Origin: Bacillus sp. (in: firmicutes)
Lineage (GTDB): Bacteria; Bacillota; Bacilli; Bacillales; Salisediminibacteriaceae
Length of the DNA: 38,531 bases
Direction of reading: 5' to 3'
Assembly: GCA_021208645.1 (NCBI GenBank)
Contig: JAJOJL010000142.1
Coordinates: forward strand, 1 to 38,531
Position numbers and translations under genes: made by a program
Part shown: positions 634-38,234 of the stretch, in pieces
Numbering within the stretch: position 1 is the first letter of the stretch
Layout of the letters: each line of letters starts with the position of its first letter
Notes under the pieces: generated by a model
Seen by the model: only the letters and a program-made list of their open reading frames with translations
Told to the model about the DNA's origin: nothing
Database searches by the model: none

Positions 634-651
634 AACTGGATAAATGTTCTT

Positions 652-660
652 TGCTATACT
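652..660 (+). promoter_or_regulatory. extended -10 promoter of the cytochrome c551 gene
   Basis: TGCTATACT is an extended -10 element (TGn plus TATACT). No good -35 box is seen at the proper distance, and the FNR-type site sits there instead. This fits an activator-dependent promoter with transcription starting near 667, about 35 bp before the start codon. Confidence 0.5.
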
Positions 661-701
661 TTCCACGATTCAAACACAATACTTTGGGGAGGTTTTTATT
701 T

Positions 702-1046
702 ATGTTAGCAAAAAACAAATTGATGCTTTTCGTCGCAGTTCTCGTTACAATGCTTTTGTTAGCAGCATGTGGAGGAGGCGATGATTCAGCATCCAACGGG
801 GAAAGTGGTAGTAGTAACGGTGGGGACGTAACTGCCAGTAGTGAAGGGGAAGAAGTTTATATGCAATCTTGTGCTGCCTGTCATGGACAAAACTTAGAAG
901 GGGCTAATGCTGTTGCCCTAACTGGTTTAACATTATCAAAAGAGGAAATTGTTGAAATTACCTTAAATGGTCAGGGCGCCATGCCTGGGGGGTTAGCTGA
1001 TGGAAAAGAAGAGGAAGTAGCGGAGTATATTTTAAGCCAGCAATAG
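702..1046 (+). CDS. cccB: membrane-anchored cytochrome c551 (lipoprotein)
   Basis: A small class I cytochrome c of 114 residues that would shuttle electrons to a terminal oxidase on the outer face of the membrane. The start at 702 is chosen over an in-frame ATG at 651 because GGGGAGG lies 9 bases before it and the product then begins with a proper lipoprotein signal. That signal ends in the lipobox LAAC, so the mature protein would be lipid-anchored. A Gly/Ser/Asn-rich linker follows, then the haem motif CAACH and the likely axial methionine in AMPGG. Size and layout match Bacillus CccB. The gene stands alone, with an FNR-type site in its promoter and a shared terminator at 1101-1135. Confidence 0.85.
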   Translation: MLAKNKLMLFVAVLVTMLLLAACGGGDDSASNGESGSSNGGDVTASSEGEEVYMQSCAACHGQNLEGANAVALTGLTLSKEEIVEITLNGQGAMPGGLADGKEEEVAEYILSQQ

Positions 1047-1100
1047 ATAAGAACGAATTTTTTTCTGTTTATAAATCAATAATTATTATTACTTAAAATA

Positions 1101-1135
1101 GAGTGTCTAAAAGGTAAATCACCTTTTAGACACTC
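1101..1135. terminator. bidirectional terminator between convergent genes
   Basis: A perfect 15-bp stem (1101-1115 with 1121-1135) with a 5-nt loop lies between the cytochrome gene and the end of the selenoprotein operon. It is followed by TTTAAATT on the plus strand and by TATTTTAAG on the minus strand, so it can end transcription from both sides. Confidence 0.85.
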
Positions 1136-1144
1136 TTTAAATTA

Positions 1145-1846
1145 TTAGTAACTTGGAAAGTGAACCTCATGTATATTTCCTGGCTCTTGCCTTTCCATTA
1201 ATTCAGCTAATGCCGATTCTAATACTTTCATTTGGGTTTTACTATCATTTGGTTTTCCAAGGGAATGACCAAACTCAAAACCTTTTGGATGGATCGCACG
1301 GGGAGGTCTCATCAGACTGGACTGCTCCACATCCAACGTAATTAGTGTTGTCGGAATCCCCTGAGCTTCAATTCCACGCTGCACTGTAACTACAGTGCGA
1401 TGACAAAGGGGTCAGCCAGCAGTTAAAAGGACAGCATCTGCCTTTGAGCGAACAACTTCCTTTACTAGGGCTGGAATCGTTTCTTTATTGATTTTATTCA
1501 ATCTCATGGAGTATCCCATCATTGTTAAATGCTTCTCCGCAACTCCACCAAGATCCCCATCCTCTACCATTTCTCGCAAGCGGTCAATGGGAAAAACACA
1601 GTTAATATCCTCTTTCGGATAGTCCGTATTATAGTGATCCTTCGGTGCTGCATGGGTAACGGTTAATTCTTCCGTTTTTACATCACCTGGAATGATTCGA
1701 AAGGTTGCGTCTCCTTCTGCCGGATCTGTATGATATGGCTCTTGATCCTTGAGATGTACACCAGAAGTAGAGACAATCATGATGGTTGTTTCGTAAATTG
1801 GCTTATTAACAGGTGTATATGGGATAGCCTTTCTTGATAGTTCCAT
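1145..1846 (-). CDS. selenoprotein of the PrdB/GrdB family, Sec at residue 145
   Basis: Two open segments in one frame are separated only by TGA at 1412-1414. Reading the TGA as selenocysteine gives 233 residues with the redox motif U-P-L-C (UxxC) inside AVLLTAGUPLCHRTVV. This is the size and type of PrdB, the selenocysteine subunit of D-proline reductase, and of the C-terminal part of GrdB-type selenoprotein B. The start at 1846 has AGGGGG six bases upstream; the in-frame ATG at 1861 lacks a site. A SECIS-like hairpin (1381-1398) follows the TGA at the correct distance. It is the second gene of an operon, 34 bp after the Sec-peroxiredoxin. No PrdA, GrdA or other reductase subunit is nearby, so its substrate is unknown. 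If the TGA were a true stop, the conserved second half would be unexplained. Confidence 0.85.
1381..1398 (-). promoter_or_regulatory. SECIS-like hairpin downstream of the Sec codon
   Basis: In the mRNA, GCACUGU pairs perfectly with ACAGUGC around the loop AGUU (or 8 bp around GU). The loop begins 20 nt after the UGA. Bacterial SECIS elements are stem-loops just 3' of UGA with a G (often GU) at the start of the apical loop, so position and loop both fit recognition by SelB. Confidence 0.75.
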
Positions 1847-1880
1847 ACACAACCCCCTCATTTCTATCAGTTAGTTTCAA

Positions 1881-2381
1881 TTACATTTTTCGTAAAACAT
1901 CGAACAATTCTTCATTATCTGGTTGACGATCTATTGGGTGTACATCAATCCACTGAACAATCCCTTCTTTATCAATGATAAATAAAGCACGTTCAGAAGC
2001 ACCATATGCTGGTTCATTTTCATTTTTGCGGAGTACTCCGTATTTCTCTGCAACCTCACCATGAGGATAGAAATCAGCACATAGTGGATAGGAAATTCCA
2101 CCAATAGACTTTGCCCATGCATCGTGACTATGAACACTGTCGACACTTATACCCAAAACTTGGGTATCAAAATCTTCAAAACGAGGTAAATCATCCTCGT
2201 ATGAAGGCATTTGCGCACCTCAGACTGGTGTCCAATCTAGAGGATAAAAACAGAGGAATACATTTTTGGATCCACGAAATTCACTTAACGTTATCATACG
2301 ATCGCCATGTGCTTTCATCGTAAAATCTGGTGCTTGATCGCCTACCTTTAAAGTGCTTGTTTCCGTTGCTCCTTGAGGCAT
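1881..2381 (-). CDS. selenocysteine-containing peroxiredoxin, Sec at residue 54
   Basis: A thioredoxin-fold peroxidase of 166 residues that would reduce peroxides with a selenol. The frame is interrupted only by TGA at 2220-2222, exactly where peroxiredoxins carry the peroxidatic cysteine: FYPLDWTPVUGAQMPSYEDD gives P-x3-T-x2-U with P47, T51 and Sec54. The conserved active-site arginine is probably R131 in ASERALFIID. Cys101 and Cys44 are present; C101 could act as a resolving residue. The start at 2381 has GGGGAG seven bases upstream; the longer frame to 2486 has no site. A SECIS-like hairpin lies at 2174-2206. It resembles PrxU of Eubacterium acidaminophilum, a known Sec-peroxiredoxin linked to glycine reductase genes, and here precedes a PrdB-like selenoprotein in an operon. 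Confidence 0.88.
2174..2206 (-). promoter_or_regulatory. SECIS-like hairpin of the peroxiredoxin gene
   Basis: The mRNA can fold into a two-part stem: CUUCA with UGAAG, a small internal loop, then ACGAGG with CCUCGU around the 8-nt loop AUGAUUUA. It starts 13 nt after the UGA and its loop begins 25 nt after it, within the range for bacterial SECIS elements. The loop G is third rather than first or second, which is a mild deviation. Confidence 0.65.
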
Positions 2382-7297: not shown

Positions 7298-10200
7298 CTA
7301 ATCCACTGATTTAAGTGACTCCACCATATTAATATTCTTTAATTTGTAATGCATAAAGATATTCACTAATGCTGTAAATACAATTGTTAGTAAGATAGAC
7401 CACACATAGCTGGAAAAGTGGACATCCCTCCCAAACATCATTGTGTCAATTTCCATTGTAATAATAACGTAATGATGAAGAACAGTGCCCAAAAGTAACC
7501 CTACAATGGTACCGAATAATGTTAAGATAAAGTTTTCACGATAAACATAACCATCTACTTCATAATTGCGGAATCCTAACACTTTAATAGTAGCTATTTC
7601 CCGCATCCTTTCCGTTATATTAATATTCGTTAAATTGTACATTACCACGAATGCTAAGGAAGCGGCTGAAATAATTAGTATCAATACAACATAATCCAAA
7701 CTCTCCATCGTCTCTTGATAAATCTCTGCAATTGTTTTATTAAAATACACACTCATTATACTCTCATGGTTCATGAAACTTTCCCTAAACATTGCTTCAT
7801 TCACCTGTTCCATGTCCGTTACCCGAAACATATAAGCGTTATAACCAACCTCTTTATCCTGTACAGTAGCTGCATATACCGGACTAACATAGATGTAATG
7901 AGATAAATAGTTTTCTGCTATAGCAGCAACGGTTAGTTCATACGTAAAATTATTTGGATCCCGATAGGAGAATGTGTCCCCTTTCTCTACTCCCAATAAA
8001 TACGCTAATTTTTCCGTAATAATAGCTCCTTCATCAGGAATTGAAATTTTATCTTGAGATCTCCGTTCCTGAAGACGAATAAAATTACTTACCTTATTAG
8101 GATTTTTAATTATCATCAAATGGGAGGAGTACGCTCTGCCAGTTTCAGAGTCAACGGCATCAACAGATTCATTATAAATAGGCATGAATTCTTTAATGTC
8201 ACCTTGTACCTCAACAAACTCATGAATATGCTTTTCCGATTTTCCCTCTAATAATATTTGTCCATCATAAAGGAAAATGTGGGTAAATTGTTTTCCCATA
8301 ATGGCATTCACCGAATCACTTAATCCGTATCCGGCAATAAGGAGTGCCGTACAACCGGCAACACCAAGCACCGTCATGTAAAAACGTCGCTTATAGCGAA
8401 ATAGATTACGAAACGTAACTTTGTGAGAAAAACTTAAACGGGTCCAGAATGCTGGTATTTTCTCCAAAAAAATCCTCTTTCCAGGCTTTGGGGCCCTTTG
8501 TTGCATTAGAACTGCAGGTGTAGACTTCAATTCCTGCATCGTAGCAGCTAACGCGGCCACAACTGTCGTTAGTAACGCAATAATCAAGGAGATAATAGCA
8601 TAGTTCCAGTGGAACGGCGTTAACCTTTCAGGAATAGAATACATAATACTATAGGCATTCATTATTGCCGTTGGAAACAATTGGAATCCTATGGTTAGAC
8701 CAATAATTGTTCCTACTATGCTTGATAGTAAAGCATATAGCAAATATTTCAATGCAATTGTAAACGTACTATATCCAAGGGCTTTTAATGTGCCAATTTG
8801 ATTTCTCTCTTCATCTATCATACGTGTCATTGTTGTTAAACAAACAAGTGCTGCAACAAGGAAAAAGAACAATGGGAAAATTTTGGCTACGGCACCAATT
8901 CGTTCTGCGTCATCTCCATACCCAGAATAACCTGGGTTTCCTTCCCTCGAAGTCACGTACCACTCTCTCGGTAGTTGCGTAAGTTTCCCTTCTGCATCCT
9001 TTATTTCTTGTTCCCCTTTTTCCAGTTCCATTAAAACAATTGCCTTTTCCTCATGAAAGTTTTCCCAACTAGACGCCAGTTCCTCTTTTCCCTCTTTTAG
9101 TTCCGCTTTAGCCTCCTGGAATTTCTGCTCCAATTCCTCTTCACCTACAACTAATTCGGCCCTTCCACGCTTTAATTTTCTCTCATTTATTTCAATTTCT
9201 TCCTTCGCTTCCTCTAGTTCCCGTTTCCCTTCCTCTAGCTGTATCTCCGCTGTTATTAACTGATCAGCACCTTGTTTGTATAAAATTAGTCCCTCTTCAT
9301 ATTCTCGCCTACCTTCTTCAAGCTGCCTCTTAGCAATTTCATATTCTGCTATAGCTGTCTCATACTGATTTTCTGTCTCTAAATACTGTGATTTTGATTC
9401 AGCTAGAAAAGTATCGATAACGCCCATGCTCACCATTGAACTTTCTGGCGAGTAATCGATCCTTTTTAAAAACTCGCCTAACTCTTTCGGAATTAGGTTA
9501 CTTTCGTCGATTAACTTCCAATATTCTTCTTGATTTGAAGGGGGAAAATTAGCTAATCGGCTTCTAAGTTCCTTTAAACGGCGGATAGCTTCTTGAAATA
9601 ATTCAAGCTGTTCTTTGCCCTCATCTAACTGTTTCCGTGCTTTATCTAACTCCTGTTGTCCTAATTCTAGTTGTCCTTGCGCTTCTGTTAATTCACTTTT
9701 TTTATTAATAAGGTCTAACTTACCATCCTCATAAGCAAGTTTTCCGTTGTACCACTGGGAGTAGCTTTCTTCGTATTTTCTTTTCCCTGCTTCTAGCTGC
9801 TGTTCTCCTGTTTCTAGCTCTTTTATAGCCTTTTCCAACTCAGCAGAAAGCTTATCCATTTCCTTTTTTAATTCAATCTCAGCCTGTTGAATAGCTCGTT
9901 CAGCGTCCAACAATTGTCCTTCCATTTCATTGAATTCCTGCTCAGCCAATTCTCTGTTTTCTCTAAGGGTTAGTTGCCCCTCTTTTAGTTCCTCCTCCAG
10001 TAACGAAATTTCCCTACCTAGCGATTCCTTGCCTAACACCCTTAAGGAATATTGGATCGGGATCAAATGATTATTATACTCCTCTGTGTAGGCTATTAAC
10101 TTCGTTGATTCCTTTGTTTTTAAAAAAAGATCCGTCGGCCTCTCTAATTGAAAATCTGCTTCATTAATAAAAGCAAAGAAATCGATTGATCCATCACCGA

Positions 10201-30909: not shown

Positions 30910-31303
30910 CTATTTTAAATTGATCTCGTTATAAATAGCCGCCCAATCCACCTTTAATTGCTCCTTTAACTTCTTATTTTCTTCTTCGAGTTGCTTCACT
31001 TTTTTTTCGAAGTGATTCAATTATCACATCTTTGGAATGTTCTGTCATATTTCGTTTAACTTGTTTCGGGGACTCTAATTTTTCTTCTTGCTTTCTTAAT
31101 GTTTCAATTCTAGACCTAATCTCACTGTATTTATATAAAAAAGGTTTTGTACTCCGGCTTTTGCCGATACAGAATTAAAATTTATCTTCTCTTTTTGTTT
31201 AATCATTTCTTTAATGGTGTTTTCAACCTTTTGCTTTGTTTTTTTCCTTTTTCTCTTCTATACTTCGAAGTAGTGGATCAATATTTGGATTTTTGTTTGC
31301 CAT
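30910..31303 (-). pseudogene. tnpC: Tn554 TnpC-like accessory protein, several frameshifts
   Basis: ATG at 31303 overlaps the end of tnpB by 46 bp. It reads MANKNPNIDPLLRSIEEKKE, and later parts in other frames read VENTIKEMIKQKEKINFNS, KPFLYKYSEIRSRIETLRKQ and VKQLEEENKKLKEQLKVDWA before TAG at 30910. At least three frame changes are needed. One is the A8 run at 31000-31007 (seven restores the frame); the others, near 31223 and 31155, are not simple run errors. The coiled-coil tail and about 131 codons fit TnpC, which sets the insertion orientation and frequency. Confidence 0.7.
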
Positions 31304-33298
31304 TGTATTTCATCTCTTTCTATAATCATTTTCTCTAATTCTCTTCTTGTTTTAGGGAGGCCGTAAAATCCTCCATTCGTTTCAATTCCATCTCTAATTT
31401 CCTTGTACTTTTTTAGTTTTGGCTGAATAATTTCAGCTGATCTATTTCTACCTGATTTTTGATATATTGCAATATCAGTTTCTATTTTAAGAATTTGTTC
31501 GTTGTAGAAATCTAGAAACGTCCGATCTACATGGAAACTACGACAACTGTTTTTTATACAAGGTGGTTCTAATGTTTCCTCTAGATAATCACAATTATTC
31601 TTTGGACTTTTAATACAAAACCCATGATCCAAACGAATTGAATCTAAATTATGACGAATCCATTCTAGCTCTAATCCATTTTCAACAGCTTGTTGTTCTA
31701 ATGTAGTTTCGACTACTTGCCCCCCTTGCTGAATCTTTACAGCCCCATTGTTTGAAGCCTTTTCCCATTCTCTACGAAGAGTGGTATCATGAATCTGGGC
31801 ATACACCAGTGTCATTTCTGGGCTCGCATGAGCCATTAACTTTTGAACATGTAATATATTCATTCCGTTATTAATAAGATTAACTCCAAATCGATGCCTG
31901 AACGCGTGTGGCTTGCATCGGTATATGCTTCCTTTTTCATCGACTATATTATTTTCTAGAGCTAATTTATTTAAATTGTTGACTACGTTTTCTCTTGAAA
32001 TAGGCTGCCCTTTCCTTGTTCCACTATAGGTTGGAAATAGATAATTATTGGGATTACTATCTGGTGACGATTTACGTTTCGTTAATTCCTGTTGCGTAAG
32101 AATTACTTTGGCTATTTCTTCAGAAACAGGGACCCGATGTGTTTTATCTTTAACTTTACGTTGTTCTCCAACAATCCACCAACCATCATCCTTTTGAATC
32201 AAGCAATCTATCTTTAGGGCACAAGTATCTGAGATTCTAAACCCTGTTGCCTCTAGTAATAATATAATCTGTCTTATTTCTTCAGGTAGTTTTTCCATAT
32301 TATTCATTATTTGCTCCCATACAAAGTCAGATATGTACTTAACATTATCCTTTGATTTGGGAGGGTACTTAGGTTTGTCTTCAGGAAAAATTAGTAATCT
32401 AACAGGTTTTATTGGTGCTTCCTCCCATCCAAACCTTTGTAGATAGTCAATTAAAGTTTCTAGAAAGGTTATAGAGCGGCATATATAGTTGGCCGAAGGA
32501 GCTTGTCCCTTATAGTTACTATTTCCACCCATAGGATGCGTTCGTAAGAACTCAATAAATTGTTCAATATCATTTCTGCTTAATTGATCCAATCCTTCCC
32601 AATTTGGGTACTTTTTATGAATGAATTTGAAGAAGACCTGTAGCTTTGCCATGTTTTGAATTGCTGATCCCCAGCTAAGGCTTTCCTGTATTAAAACACG
32701 GCTTTTGACATACTTTTTTAAGAGATTCCTAAAAGGTATAGGAACTGAATTAAAATTCAATGTGCAATCTGTAGAAGTGCTCTGATTGTAATCAATTCCT
32801 AGCTTACGGACATTCCAAATGTCTTTTTCAGTTTCGCTTCGACCATCATACCAATCAATATAAAAGTCATGAATTCGATTATATAACTGCACATAACCTT
32901 TAACTGTTAACTTACTGCAACCACCTTCGAAAAGATGAGTTTTATAGTGAAACAAAAACTTTTCATATGAAATGTCTAGAATTGAATTTATATCTGAATA
33001 AAACTCTAGGATAAACCGTTGTAATCTATTTATTGCTGTAGACCTTCTCCATACTGTCTCCATCTTCAATACTGATTCAGTTAGACATTTGAAAAAATAG
33101 TATTTTAATTCATTCGTTACTCCTGGATTTAATGCTGTGTTAAATTTAACAACTTGTTTATTTATATTGGTTTCACTAGTGTAAAGTGGGCATTCTATTG
33201 GAATCCAACTATCATTGGTCCAATATCCTTGTAACTCTGTCTCAATTCGTTTGTGCTGGATTTTTTTTAGTTTCCTTCTTAGATAGGTTTAACTGCAT
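31258..33298 (-). CDS. tnpB: Tn554 TnpB-type tyrosine recombinase, frame broken at an A8 run
   Basis: The larger Tn554 transposase. The intact part from 33069 has the catalytic residues R in ATGFRISDTCAL, HAFRH in PHAFRHRFGVNL, and H with Y in MAHASPEMTLVYAQIHD, plus a C-terminal cysteine group (CIKSPKNNC, CIKNSC). Coding continues upstream past 33069 to a run of eight A (plus T 33261-33268). With seven A the frame reaches ATG at 33298, giving MQLNLSKKETKKIQHKR and about 679 residues, overlapping the end of tnpA by 20 bp. As given, the frame upstream of 33069 has no ATG, GTG or TTG start before its stop at 33289. Confidence 0.82.
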
Positions 33299-34373
33299 CT
33301 TTATTCCCACCCTTCATATTCTCTTGGGCTTTTAGCCACTCTTTTCGAATTGTTTCGTCTGTTGGATGGACGTATGTTTGTATTGTTGTTTGGACCTGTG
33401 AGTGCCCTAACAACTTTTGAATTATTGATACTTCTACCCCTTGTTCATGGAGCTCAGTGGCATAAGTGTGCCTTAACATATGGGGTGTAATGTCAATCTT
33501 AGTTTTCTTTCTTATTCGTTTAATTACATCGAAAGCTGCTTGATATTTTAATGGTTCTCCCTTATTAGGACCAGTTAAATTTATAAATACATGATTGGTA
33601 TCCGCATCATGAATATCAATTAAATAATCTTGAAAAACATTCATTGTATCGCCAGATACATATACCCTTCTCCCTCTGCCATTTATAGTCTTAGATTCTC
33701 GTACTTGAATAGATGTTGAACCAATATCAAAGTCCTCAATCCATAAAGATAATGCCTCTCCAATTCTAAGACCACCTTCATATAAAACTCGGACCAATAA
33801 AGCATCTCGAATATTACTACACGCATCATGAATAGATTGAACCTGATCTTTTGAAAGTGTTAGAACTTCTCTTCGAGGTTCTTTGATTTTTAATATGTTT
33901 CTATCATGTGGCTTCCCCTTCGATATGTGATGAAGAAAGGGTTTGAATGATCGGTGATTCCCAATTACTTGCTTCTTTGTTTTCTCAGATAAATCATTTT
34001 CATAATCTTCAATTCGCATCAAGTAGTCATAGAAACTCTGAACGCAAGTCACCATAGTATTAACTGTTCGCTCAGATCTCTTTGCTTTTGTTTGTTGTAA
34101 TTGAATAACTTTAGTAGATTGATGCGGACTTCTTAGCCAAGATATATACTCCGCCAGAAGATCAAGATCTACTTCCTTGTACTCCTTTTCTTTTTCGTTT
34201 AAAAATTGAAAGTAAAACTTTAAATAATGACAGTATGACTTTAATGTATTTTCTGCTTTCCCAATGTTATCTAGATATTTAAGAAACCTTAATACAGGAA
34301 CAATAGGTTTGTTATCCCCATCGATAAGCAAGTATCTCTTTTTGTCATTAATTAAAACCTCTTGCACTTTCAT
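33279..34373 (-). CDS. tnpA: Tn554 TnpA-type tyrosine recombinase
   Basis: A 364-residue site-specific recombinase with an N-terminal SAM-like core-binding domain and a C-terminal catalytic domain: R in EGGLRIGEALSL, HxxR in TPHMLRHTYATEL, H in LLGHSQVQTTIQ and the nucleophile Y in QTYVHPT. All six conserved positions appear intact. The start at 34373 (MKVQEVLIND) has GGAGG eight bases upstream; earlier in-frame codons are less likely. First gene of the transposition operon. Confidence 0.88.
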   Translation of the reverse strand: MKVQEVLINDKKRYLLIDGDNKPIVPVLRFLKYLDNIGKAENTLKSYCHYLKFYFQFLNEKEKEYKEVDLDLLAEYISWLRSPHQSTKVIQLQQTKAKRSERTVNTMVTCVQSFYDYLMRIEDYENDLSEKTKKQVIGNHRSFKPFLHHISKGKPHDRNILKIKEPRREVLTLSKDQVQSIHDACSNIRDALLVRVLYEGGLRIGEALSLWIEDFDIGSTSIQVRESKTINGRGRRVYVSGDTMNVFQDYLIDIHDADTNHVFINLTGPNKGEPLKYQAAFDVIKRIRKKTKIDITPHMLRHTYATELHEQGVEVSIIQKLLGHSQVQTTIQTYVHPTDETIRKEWLKAQENMKGGNKDAVKPI

Positions 34374-34482
34374 CAACATCACCTCCAGGTACAATAGTGA
34401 TGTATTTTTGTTACTCTTTCTATGGAAACTATGTTTACTATATTTATTTACTAAATATATGTAGTAAATAAAGAAACAAAAA

Positions 34483-34523
34483 GGGCGTAGTATTTAACGT
34501 TATTAACGTTAAATACTACGCCC
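34483..34523 (-). terminator. perfect 19-bp hairpin upstream of tnpA
   Basis: A perfect 19-bp stem (34483-34501 with 34505-34523) around a 3-nt loop is followed on the minus strand by TTTTTGTTTC. It would stop transcription entering tnpA from upstream. The length and perfection are unusual for a plain terminator. Confidence 0.65.
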
Positions 34524-34573
34524 TGATATACTACATATAAGGGTGCGTTAGTATAAGAAGAAATAACATTTTT

Positions 34574-34607
34574 AAAAGGAGCTTGGAATCCGATCCAAGC
34601 TCCTTTT
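34574..34607. terminator. second strong hairpin upstream of tnpA
   Basis: AAAAGGAGCTTGGA pairs perfectly with TCCAAGCTCCTTTT around a 6-nt loop. The A/T ends of the stem make it a bidirectional terminator. It follows the 19-bp hairpin by 50 bp, in a gene-free stretch (34374-34823). Confidence 0.6.
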
Positions 34608-34823
34608 AAGTATGTCTTATCAGTGATAGCTAAACGCTGTGCTGGTATCATTTTGACCTTACGTGTTTTTAAGAATAATCATTGATAGTGATTTTCAACA
34701 CCCCAATTAATAACCCTTTTATCATAAGGACAAAAATTATTGTACTAACGCGATTTGCTATGCTAAATACTAATCCTAATGCTAAAACGTTCTAAAATCA
34801 TAATAAAGCCTGATAAATCAACG

Positions 34824-34930
34824 AAAAAAAGAGATGCGAATTAGCGTGATAATTCCATCTCTAATTGGCGTGTTATTTCATGTTTTCTCCCTCTCAAACG
34901 AACGGCTTATTAATTGGAGACAGTTGTTCA
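34824..34930 (-). ncRNA. RNA-like repeat motif, copy 2, with attenuator-like terminator
   Basis: Read on the minus strand: AACAACTGTCTCCAATTA, GCCGTTCGTTTGAGAGGGAG, then AGAGATG pairing with CATCTCT and seven T. An alternative pairing AATTAG with CTAATT overlaps the terminator stem, as in attenuators. The first 50 nt match copy 1 at 29780. Confidence 0.4.
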
Positions 34931-34948
34931 ATGATTAGAGTCAAATAA

Positions 34949-35281
34949 TTAAAAAGGCAGCGTTTCTTTCACCTTAAAATGCCCTCTCAATTCCTGTATT
35001 AAATGCTCATATGGGGTAGTTTCAACTTGACGAAACCCTTTCTGTGTATATAAGTGGACAGCATTTGGTAATTCATGCTTTAACTGTTTTCTCAATTTCT
35101 TACCTGCATCGTCTTCATCCACAAGAATGTAGACCTCCTTGTCCTCCACAGGCAATATAAAAGATTCCAGCTTTTCTTCACTTAGTGTCCCGTTTGTACA
35201 AATGATATCAACTGGTTCATCTAAGACAGCCTTCACTCTTTTTCTGTCGTTTATCCCCTCAACGATCAACACTTTTCCCAT
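34949..35281 (-). CDS. yusF: toprim-domain protein (YusF-like)
   Basis: A 110-residue protein made of a single toprim domain: the acidic Glu motif in VLIVEGINDRKRVK and the DxD pair in VYILVDEDDAGKKLRKQL. It resembles B. subtilis YusF, a small relative of RNase M5 whose function is unknown. The start at 35281 (MGKVLIV) has AGGA just upstream. The gene lies directly beside the left end of an IS200/IS605-type element, whose insertion has separated it from whatever originally lay upstream. Confidence 0.8.
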   Translation of the reverse strand: MGKVLIVEGINDRKRVKAVLDEPVDIICTNGTLSEEKLESFILPVEDKEVYILVDEDDAGKKLRKQLKHELPNAVHLYTQKGFRQVETTPYEHLIQELRGHFKVKETLPF

Positions 35282-35391
35282 GTTTTCCTCATTCCCTTGT
35301 AGGTGTGTTAGCAATAGTGTAGTGAACCTCTCCTGCTAAATCATAGATTTTGATGGAGCATCCCTTATCTTGAATACAGTACAAAACCAGT

Positions 35392-36751
35392 TTAAGCCAC
35401 CTTCGGTGACTCCATTACTGAATAAAGACTAATTAACGAAGACAAGGTTTGTTGTGTTCTTTTTGACAATTCAGGAACGTTTGCCTGAAAGGCCAACCAC
35501 TTCTTTTCAGAAGTGGATTTTTGAATACCGCGAATAAAATAACGTGCACCAATATTATAGCTAGCGGATAGATCCGCATGATAGACTTTGCCTGTCGTAA
35601 ACGTGGCAAGGTCTCTTTTGCTATTACGTTCCACTTTACCTGATCCATCAAATGCTAATGCACTTGTATTTCGAGCGTTTATCCTTGAAATCCTCATGCC
35701 TTGGAAGTGTGCCATTTCCTCCACTTTGTTTTGGATACCTTTCTTCCGCCAGTAGCGAAGTTTGAAACGGAGTTTCTTTGCACCGTAGTGATTTTTAGGC
35801 ACTTTCATTTTATCAAGGTACTCGAATACAATCACATCACATTGATGGGATTGGGCAAATCTTACGATTTCAGAAGAAGTGTGATGGATAATATGTTTTT
35901 GTAACCCATTGATTCTTCTCCAAAAATTTGGTGCTGCAATCCAACCTGAAACGGACTGTGCTTTGCGGAGTTTGTTTGTCATGGTATACAAGTGGTCTTT
36001 TTCTTTTGACTGGTTAATAAACTTGCGAGCCAAGACAGTGCCCCTTGCATCCATGATGGAACAAACTGCAGAATTATTAATGTTTAAGTCGACAGCACAA
36101 ATAATTTGGTCATCGATCGGTGTGTTTGTTAATTTTACTTTTGATTGAAACGTAAAGTGGAGAAAATATTTCTTTCCCACCTTCACCAGTTTAGGGCTAG
36201 ATTCCTTCCAGCCCCAAACATCCCGTTTATAATGGTCTTGTTCTTTAAACTCGATGTCTACCCATACCCAATCGTTGTTGTGAAATACTTTTATCTGAGC
36301 ACTTGTATCGGATGTTTTCATAAACATATTTCCTTTATAAAACACGGGAAATTCTTTGTGATTCACCTGTAATGTGGGGGCTTTTTTCTTGAATGTCACT
36401 CCTTGTAATAGAGCCATCTCCTTTTCTTCCACCCAGTTTTGATAGTTAGAGCGGAAGCTCTTCACTTTCCCAAAGGCAGAAGCAATGGCACTTCTTCTGA
36501 AGTAAGAAGGAAATTTATAAAAAAAGTTGATCGAACTCTCTATATTTAGGCAATGGGTTTGATTTTGTTGTATGAATAAGCTTTTCTACTTCTGGAACGA
36601 TGGACTTACTTGTTCTATCCTCGAGATTACCGAATTCCTTTTCCATAACCTCAATAATAAAGGACAAAGCTAGATTATACACCTCCAGTGTGGCGTCAAA
36701 AATACGGGAGTGATTGGTAATCTTATGGCGTAATGTTTTCGCTATTTTCAT
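35392..36751 (-). pseudogene. tnpB: IS605 TnpB (RNA-guided nuclease family), one frameshift
   Basis: MKIAKTLRHKITNHSRIFD starts at 36751 after GGGG. The frame breaks at T7 (plus A run near 36519-36525); six T restore FDQLFYKFPSYFRRSAIAS, for about 453 residues. The RuvC triad is intact: D in CAVDLNINNSAV, E in VIVFEYLDKM, D in YHADLSASYNIGARYF. The usual four-cysteine zinc ribbon between E and the last D is missing; NTSALAFDGSGKVERN stands there, as in a zinc-free subgroup. In active systems the 3' end of this gene and the element end produce the guide RNA. Confidence 0.78.
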
Positions 36752-36836
36752 ACTGAACACCCCTTTACCAAAACGTATGTTCTATAGTTTATTATACGAT
36801 AGATTAATTTTCGTTGTAAACGGAGAAGGGAGTATA

Positions 36837-37223
36837 ATGGAGTATAAAAAGAATCGACACGCCTATTACAAATTAACCTACCACTTCGTTGTTGTTACAA
36901 AATAGAGACATAAATGCATATCAGAGAAAATGATGATACGGCTAGTTGCTTTGTTCGAGAAATGGGATTGTGAGCTAATTGAAATGAATGGGGAGGAAGA
37001 TCATGTACATATCTTGTTTGATGCCCCTCCTCAGATCAACCTGGCCAACACTATTAATAGTTTTAAAACGGTCACTTCCCGTTATATTAGAAAAGAGTTT
37101 CCTAAGGAACTGGAAACGTTTTATTGGAAACCTTATTTTTGGAGTCGAAGTTATATGATTTTAACCACCGGTGGTGCTACCATTGATGTAATAAAAAAAT
37201 ATTTTGAAAGACAAGGAGAATAA
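36837..37223 (+). pseudogene. tnpA: IS200-type Y1 transposase with in-frame TAG
   Basis: ATG at 36837 follows AAGGGAG. The frame reads MEYKKNRHAYYKLTYHFVVV, TK, then TAG at 36903-36905, and stays open in the same frame to 37223. The HUH motif is present (EEDHVHILFDAP), as is the nucleophile tyrosine in VIKKYFERQ. Length without the stop, 128 codons, is normal. The single nonsense codon inactivates it unless suppressed. It is divergent from tnpB with a 76-bp shared promoter region. Confidence 0.78.
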
Positions 37224-37256: not shown

Positions 37257-38234
37257 TTGAAGGGGAATGCGGCGCTAATAGTTTTGTTCAAAAGGACCGT
37301 GGAGAAGTACCAACATAGAAAAAAGAAAATTGCCGCTGTTACTGCCTGTTCCAATGTGACAGGTATAGAAACTCCATATCATAAAATAGCCAAAGTCATT
37401 CACCAATACGGTGGAGTCTGTTTTGTAGATTTTGCATGCTCCGCACCTTATGTAAATATCAATATGAAACCAAAAGACAAAGAGGAAAGGTTAGATGCGA
37501 TCTACTTTTCGCCTCATAAATTTTTAGGGGGGCCTGGAACGAATGGAGTTCTTATTTTTGATAAAAATCTATATAATAATACGATTCCAGATCACCCTGG
37601 AGGTGGTACGGTAAAATGGGTAGATCCATGGGGAGGAAGAAGTTACCTTGATGATATTGAGAAAAGGGAAGATGGAGGAACGCCAGGATTTCTCCAAGTT
37701 ATCAAGACAGCATTAACTGTTAAGCTGAAGGAAGAGATGGGGGTTAGTAAGATACTGGCTCGTGAAAAGGAGCAGTTGGAACTAGTATTTAATAAACTTA
37801 GAAATAAACCTCACCTCCACATTTTACAAGGAGATATTCGTGAACGCCTAGGAGTATTTTCATTTTATACGAAGGCGGTGCATTATAATTTATTTACAAA
37901 ACTTTTAAGTGATAGGTTTGGTATTCAGGCACGGGGAGGATGTTCCTGTGCAGGACCTTATGGGCACTACTTGCTGGGGATTGGTAAAGAGAAATCAAGG
38001 AAACTTAGGAAAGAGATAGAGGCAGGAAATTTACAGCATAAACCAGGCTGGGTTCGTATTTCCATCCATCCAACCATGACTAATTCAGAAATAACCTTTA
38101 TCGCCGATGCCATTTTATCTATTATGGAGAATCATGAGGATTGGAAGAAGGATTACAGCTATGATAAAAGAAAAAATCAGTTTTTTCATAGGAATACGAA
38201 CGATAAAGGGGAATTGACCAGTTGGTTTGAATGA
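37257..38234 (+). pseudogene. class V aminotransferase (cysteine desulfurase/lyase-like), N-terminus lost
   Basis: The remaining 325 codons contain the PLP lysine in YFSPHKFLGGPGTNG, the PLP-binding aspartate region in VCFVDFACSAPYV and the C-terminal GGCSCAGPYGHYLLGI with a possible active-site cysteine. Family members of this kind are about 480-500 residues, so the first 160-170, including the HxN/S substrate part, are missing. Convincing homology starts about ten codons into the frame, directly at the right end of the IS element. The missing half is not at the left end, so a deletion accompanied or followed the insertion. A TTG at 37257 could start translation but the product should be inactive. 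Confidence 0.75.

What the first reader, a model, noticed from the sequence alone, without database searches (positions are those of the whole stretch)
1145..2381. Two-gene selenoprotein operon in a Bacillaceae-like chromosome
Adjacent genes each contain a single in-frame TGA exactly at a redox-active position: the peroxidatic site of a peroxiredoxin (P-x3-T-x2-U) and the UxxC motif of a PrdB/GrdB-like protein. Both halves of each protein are conserved across the TGA, and a SECIS-like hairpin follows each one. Sec-peroxiredoxin and GrdB/PrdB selenoproteins are known from amino-acid-fermenting clostridia. A paired operon next to an aerobic-type cytochrome gene in a bacillus is unusual, and standard gene callers would split both genes.
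Basis: partly seen in the sequence, partly recalled or inferred. Interest (0 to 1): 0.92.

Follow-up and report, generated by a model that had tools for sequence, protein, structure and literature searches.

The report
Paired selenium redox genes in bacilli
Two neighbouring genes in a bacillus each appear to use a stop codon to insert the selenium amino acid at a redox-active site, and the same pair is kept in many related bacilli, which points to a dedicated selenium-based peroxide-handling unit whose chemistry is untested.

Summary
Minus-strand genes 2381-1881 (AhpE-type peroxiredoxin, TGA 2220-2222, U54) and 1846-1145 (PrdB/GrdB-like, TGA 1412-1414, U145) read through as conserved proteins. 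In 30 non-redundant Bacillales loci the genes are adjacent and both TGAs are kept, 30 of 30, although four-fold sites are only 33-44% identical to the window's. TGA-form PrdB-like genes go with SelA in 38 of 38 sampled genomes besides the window's; the three Cys-form genomes lack it. The window's own assembly (76.6% complete) shows no selA, selB, selC or selD, but a contig ends where a relative's sel cluster begins, so that absence is uninformative. It is not D-proline reductase: PrdA was not found in 14 of 14 pair genomes, three of them under 81% complete, and the pair is its own clade. The prdB-like SECIS fits the published model; the prx one does not in this window. Best mechanism, unproven: a Sec-peroxiredoxin without a fixed resolving Cys, reduced by its UxxC neighbour. 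New variant of known selenoprotein families.

The parts
1881..2381 (-). prx: AhpE-type peroxiredoxin, 166 aa, Sec at residue 54 in PLDWTPVU
2220..2222 (-). TGA (Sec) codon of prx
   Evidence: TGA in 30 of 30 non-redundant loci
2175..2219 (-). synonymously constrained stretch after the prx TGA; two mutually exclusive hairpins, SECIS assignment provisional
1145..1846 (-). prdB-like gene, 233 aa, Sec at residue 145 in a UxxC motif (AGUPLCHR); the frame is open up to 1861 but L013 supports the start at 1846
1412..1414 (-). TGA (Sec) codon of the prdB-like gene
   Evidence: TGA in 30 of 30 non-redundant loci
1381..1398 (-). bSECIS hairpin, 7-bp stem GCACUGU/ACAGUGC, loop AGUU, loop 20 nt after the UGA
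1100..1136 (.). inverted repeat AGAGTGTCTAAAAGGT...ACCTTTTAGACACTCT, probable terminator shared with the convergent cytochrome gene (read by eye, no scan run)
   Evidence: sequence
651..1046 (+). cytochrome c551-like protein (PF13442; NF045774 91 bits, under its cut-off of 118), convergent neighbour, not part of the unit

Best explanation
It is a two-gene selenoprotein operon. Shown by comparison: UGA is a conserved sense codon at the peroxidatic site of an AhpE-type peroxiredoxin and at the U of a UxxC motif in a PrdA-less PrdB-like protein, in genomes that have Sec machinery. Inferred: the peroxiredoxin selenol reduces a hydroperoxide and becomes a selenenic acid; lacking a fixed resolving Cys, it needs an outside reductant; the co-encoded UxxC protein, which could form an internal selenenyl-sulfide, does this and is then recycled by cellular thiols or a flavoprotein. 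I put the Sec-coding part at about 0.97 and the reductase role of the PrdB-like protein at about 0.4-0.45; the single figure below is for the whole.
For: Adjacency and both TGAs in 30 of 30 non-redundant loci, with mostly different flanking genes. Identity to the window 81-94% for prx (18 close rows of A1) and 84-95% for PrdB-like (17 close rows of A2), with four-fold sites 33-44% identical. SelA in 38 of 38 genomes with a full TGA-form PrdB-like gene (G000 left out) and 0 of 3 Cys-form genomes. tRNA-Sec over the cut-off in 8 of 8 congeners, 11 of 12 pair genomes of the order sample and 0 of 7 SelA-less controls; SelD in 8 of 8 and 12 of 12. bSECIS after the prdB-like TGA. Best solved relatives of Prx are chains named Rv2238c/MT2298 (6.9e-31; that this is AhpE is recalled); C43 and C101 each vary among the pair's own relatives (16 of 19 rows keep each). 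Sec145 and Cys148 invariant in the 32 sequences of A2. Confident single-chain model (pLDDT 90.7, pTM 0.90).
Against: No experiment. No SelA, SelB, SelD or tRNA-Sec over the cut-off in the window's own assembly. G040 carries the pair but gave no tRNA-Sec over the cut-off (only 103 of 166 candidates were scored). The prx hairpin does not meet the published rules in the window and without the energy limit does no better than controls. Folding energy alone is weak for prdB-like (median z -1.45; window z -1.00, 16% of randomisations as good). C101 is kept in 16 of 19 close Prx rows and could resolve there. Functional coupling rests on co-location; no complex was modelled; other TGA-form PrdB-like genes, five of them in pair genomes, stand without prx in the stretches held.
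Confidence: 0.55

Rival explanations
1. The PrdB-like protein reduces some other electrophile (a small molecule or an oxyanion), and the Sec-peroxiredoxin guards its selenol against peroxide.
For: PrdB and GrdB act in reductive cleavage of amino acids (PMC13188914, passages; attack by the Sec itself is recalled). In G229 the pair lies beside two rhodanese-domain genes, a TusA-family gene and a Sulf_transp (PF04143) gene. TGA-form PrdB-like genes without prx exist, one (L119) beside a pyridine nucleotide-disulphide oxidoreductase.
Against: PrdA found in 0 of 14 pair genomes; the sulfur-gene context was seen in one locus; no neighbour recurs in more than 4 of 19 large loci.
Confidence: 0.35
2. 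The second gene is a D-proline or glycine reductase subunit.
For: TIGR04483 hit (9e-46) and the UxxC motif.
Against: 156 bits against a cut-off of 300; PrdA in 0 of 14 pair genomes (11 of these at least 92% complete) against 3 of 3 Cys-PrdB genomes; separate clade, 100/99.
Confidence: 0.02
3. In this particular genome the sel genes are really lost and both genes give truncated products.
For: No SelA, SelB, SelD or tRNA-Sec over the cut-off.
Against: Assembly 76.6% complete; contig C29 starts near where selA should end; selB, selC and selD over the cut-off in 8 of 8 congeners; both frames intact.
Confidence: 0.05
4. UGA is read here as Cys or another residue by an unusual tRNA, not as Sec.
For: Not excluded by the window alone.
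Against: Co-occurrence with SelA and tRNA-Sec and the bSECIS hairpin.
Confidence: 0.01

Closest known systems
AhpE-type peroxiredoxin (Rv2238c, PDB 4x1u; the name AhpE for it is recalled)
   Same: Best match among solved chains, peroxidatic residue aligned; no fully conserved resolving Cys
   Different: Sec at the peroxidatic site; beside a UxxC selenoprotein in every locus examined. Mycobacterial AhpE is reduced through mycothiol/mycoredoxin (title in the reference list and passage of PMC10950700).
Sec-peroxiredoxins (PrxU, NF040737; 'Prx TxxU')
   Same: PxxxTxxU motif; Prx is a listed selenoprotein family (PMC2398784, PMC13188914, passages)
   Different: PrxU model 79 bits against a cut-off of 270
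D-proline reductase PrdB
   Same: TIGR04483 relative with UxxC
   Different: PrdA not found; separate clade; AGUPLCHR instead of GCGTCHR in the four PrdA-linked rows compared
Neighbouring selenoprotein genes: Prx/SelW, Prx-like/AhpD-like, grdAB, prdB-prdC, SAO, Tso
   Same: Several selenoprotein genes side by side (PMC2398784, PMC13188914, passages)
   Different: Different partners; a Prx/PrdB-like pair is not named in the passages seen

Membership tests
Bacterial selenoproteins | In-frame UGA at a redox Cys/Sec position, conserved in relatives | tested here: met
Bacterial selenoproteins | bSECIS hairpin after the UGA | tested here: inconclusive
   With the energy limit: prdB-like 28 of 30, prx 9 of 30 and not the window, controls 0.45% of 8433
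Bacterial selenoproteins | SelA, SelB, SelD and tRNA-Sec in the same genome | tested here: inconclusive
   Not found in G000, where a contig ends at the expected place. In the 12 pair genomes of the order sample: SelA 12, SelD 12, tRNA-Sec 11. SelB was searched in the genus only (8 of 8 congeners)
Bacterial selenoproteins | Selenium in the protein | not testable with these tools
   needs 75Se or mass spectrometry
AhpE-type peroxiredoxin | Closest solved relatives are AhpE | tested here: met
   seven best hits are annotated Rv2238c/MT2298 or AhpC/TSA family; name AhpE recalled
AhpE-type peroxiredoxin | No resolving Cys | tested here: inconclusive
   C43 and C101 not invariant, each kept in 16 of 19 close rows
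D-proline reductase (PrdAB) | PrdA in the same genome | tested here: not met
   0 of 14 pair genomes, 3 of 3 Cys-PrdB genomes
D-proline reductase (PrdAB) | PrdB model over its curated cut-off | tested here: not met
   156.2 of 300 bits
Glycine reductase GrdB | GrdB model over its cut-off | tested here: not met
   TIGR01917 49.5 of 602.2 bits, profile 221-414 of 431 only
PrxU | NF040737 over its cut-off | tested here: not met
   79.3 of 270 bits

The most novel reading that the evidence does not exclude
A self-contained all-selenium peroxidase couple spread across Bacillales: a one-Sec peroxiredoxin whose dedicated electron donor is a PrdA-less PrdB-like selenol-thiol protein, giving that scaffold a peroxide-defence role outside amino-acid fermentation.
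Probability: 0.4. Interest if true: 0.78.

Novelty: new variant of a known kind. Interest (0 to 1): 0.6.

Why it matters
PrdB-type selenoproteins are usually named as amino-acid fermentation enzymes, yet 235 were counted in marine metagenomes (PMC2398784, passage), where I doubt that reading (inference). A tightly coupled Prx/PrdB-like pair without PrdA offers a testable other role. A review states that aerobic bacteria rarely keep selenoproteins (PMC13188914, passage); if the hosts prove to be aerobes, which was not tested here, this pair would be a counter-example.

Tried and rejected
Considered and rejected: D-proline/glycine reductase subunit; chance stops or frameshifts; cytochrome as part of the unit; recent transfer as the reason for the high protein identity (four-fold sites 33-44% identical; older transfer stays possible).

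Led nowhere or weak: a 14-kb DNA probe from the relative's sel region hit a dispersed repeat in 51 of 52 listed matches (40 of 233 candidates scored). A DUF520 (yajQ-type) probe from that region found nothing in G000, without a positive control. A sigma-B-like site (consensus recalled; for example GATTAA-N14-GGGAAT about 50 nt upstream) is visible in about ten of 30 loci, mean best score 9.37 against 8.62 in shuffles, but only 8 of 12 in the window. Plasmid search: 24 records, all under 60% identity. PDB sequence search with the PrdB-like protein or profile gave a weak hit to a designed repeat protein (7.6e-4, 0.0016), nothing else under 0.05. Fold comparison could not be run. Paper searches; passages read in PMC2398784, PMC13188914, PMC9312934, PMC5029168, PMC1794560, PMC1088965, PMC10950700. 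No paper naming this pair was seen there; most papers were seen as listings only, so this is no proof of absence. Tree: 16 of 30 pair rows used. L013 was left out of A2 because of its upstream TAG.

Full report
Observation. Read through, they are an AhpC/TSA peroxiredoxin and a PrdB/GrdB relative. The longer start at 1861 is unlikely, since L013 has a TAG just before MELSRK.

Conservation. The PrdB-like protein was found at 83-91% identity in 12 further genomes of a 299-genome order sample and at 83-93% in 21 named loci (Evansella, Litchfieldia, Neobacillus, Mesobacillus, Anaerobacillus, Calidifontibacillus, Aneurinibacillus and others). Every one of these loci has prx directly upstream and a stop at both positions; without duplicates 30 loci remain, window included, with TGA 30 of 30 in both genes and gaps of -1 to 124 bases. 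Four-fold sites outside the SECIS stretches are 33-44% identical between the window and the other 29; a neighbouring exporter gene against its relative in G008 gives 30%. So the TGAs have outlived near-saturating synonymous change. Neighbours mostly differ: in 19 large loci only a luciferase-like monooxygenase (4), a LysR-type regulator (3) and a sensor-kinase family (3) recur besides the pair. Among eight congeners only G008 has a close prx (93%); it shares three neighbouring families with the window at 69-78% identity. G008 is Evansella vedderi by duplicate sequence and contig length, so the window probably belongs to that genus (inference; the bin has 5.2% contamination).

Sec machinery. 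In the order sample 138 of 298 genomes other than G000 have full SelA, among them all 12 pair genomes and all 38 genomes with a full TGA-form PrdB-like gene; the three Cys-form genomes do not (Cys read). tRNA-Sec is over the cut-off in 8 of 8 congeners, 11 of 12 pair genomes (not G040) and 0 of 7 SelA-less controls; only about 100 candidates per genome were scored. SelD is over the cut-off in 8 of 8 congeners and 12 of 12 pair genomes, with a TGA in 19 of these 20. G000 has none of SelA, SelB, SelD or tRNA-Sec over the cut-off. In 8 of 8 congeners selB, selC and selD lie within about 13 kb. In the three looked at closely (G003, G004, G008) SelA (PF03841 E at most 1.8e-133) and an 84-91-aa ORF follow, and in G003 and G008 then a gene read as aconitase. 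In G000 that gene (93% identical) and the small ORF lie at the start of contig C29, whose first bases look repetitive by eye; alignment to G008 puts the expected selA stop about 110 bases from the contig end, and no SelA remnant is seen there. An assembly gap would look like this; presence is not shown.

SECIS. After the prdB-like UGA a 7-bp stem with loop AGUU pairs in 30 of 30, with one double change in L023, and codons 155-160 hold nearly one codon choice each. The published rules (PMC13188914, passage) pass in 30 of 30, but without the energy limit also at 54% of 8433 control positions; with it in 28 of 30 against 0.45%. After the prx UGA codons 59, 61 and 62 are fixed, 30 of 30, while codon 60 varies, which fits a short proximal hairpin whose loop has no G; the usual lowest-energy fold is a distal hairpin (23-28/37-42), whose pairs fail in 0 to 3 of 30. 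The rules pass in 17 of 30, no better than controls, with the energy limit in 9 of 30, and not in the window. Against synonymous randomisation the median z is -2.70 (prx) and only -1.45 (prdB-like). Many other TGA-form PrdB-like genes and the second Sec-Prx of the genus also fold hairpins there; no control was run for those.

What the proteins are. Prx is closest among solved chains to Rv2238c (AhpE by recall). Cys43 and Cys101 are each kept in 16 of 19 close rows. In 32 PrdB-like sequences (18 pair members of 30, 14 distant relatives) Sec145 and Cys148 are invariant. The AlphaFold model is confident; fold comparison was not available. PrdA was found in 0 of 14 pair genomes, of which G000, G166 and G218 are 77, 80 and 62% complete, and in 3 of 3 Cys-PrdB genomes, next to prdB. 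A tree of 40 rows puts the 16 pair rows in one clade (100/99) apart from the four PrdA-linked rows; several long branches make deeper placement unsure, and one row without PrdA nearby (L129) groups with the PrdA-linked ones.

Mechanism. A Sec-peroxiredoxin lacking a fixed resolving residue needs an external reductant; a UxxC protein encoded beside it in every locus seen is the simplest candidate. This is inference from co-location and motifs. The rival, that the PrdB-like protein acts on another substrate with Prx as its guard, is close behind; in G229 two rhodanese-domain genes, a TusA-family gene and a Sulf_transp gene lie next door.

Novelty. Both families are listed selenoproteins, and Sec in Bacillales was tabulated in 2006. 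The coupled, PrdA-less pair was not named in the listings and passages seen. I file it as a new variant of a known kind.

Noticed in passing
L100 about 7965-8730 and many contigs of G000: A dispersed repeat between tRNA-Sec and selB in G008 has 51 partial matches (73-94% identity) in G000.
   Followed up: no
L064-L068, L071: A second Sec-peroxiredoxin (39-44% identical, FTPGU motif) in six of eight congeners, without a PrdB-like gene in the stretch held; four weaker TGA-bearing hits as well.
   Followed up: partly
L024-L040, L119-L123: Several TGA-form PrdB-like subfamilies (UYICHQ, UPxCQQ and others) in Bacillales without prx in the stretch held; L121 also holds a pair.
   Followed up: partly
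L116, L117, L118: Cys-form PrdB next to PrdA in three SelA-less Bacillales genomes.
   Followed up: yes
window 31258-37223: Two phage-integrase-family recombinases, a Toprim protein and an IS200-like transposase, beside ORFs without Pfam match at 35392-36757.
   Followed up: partly
window 37257-38234: Class-V aminotransferase matching only positions 132-368 of the 371-position profile, directly after the IS200-like transposase; perhaps cut by the insertion.
   Followed up: no
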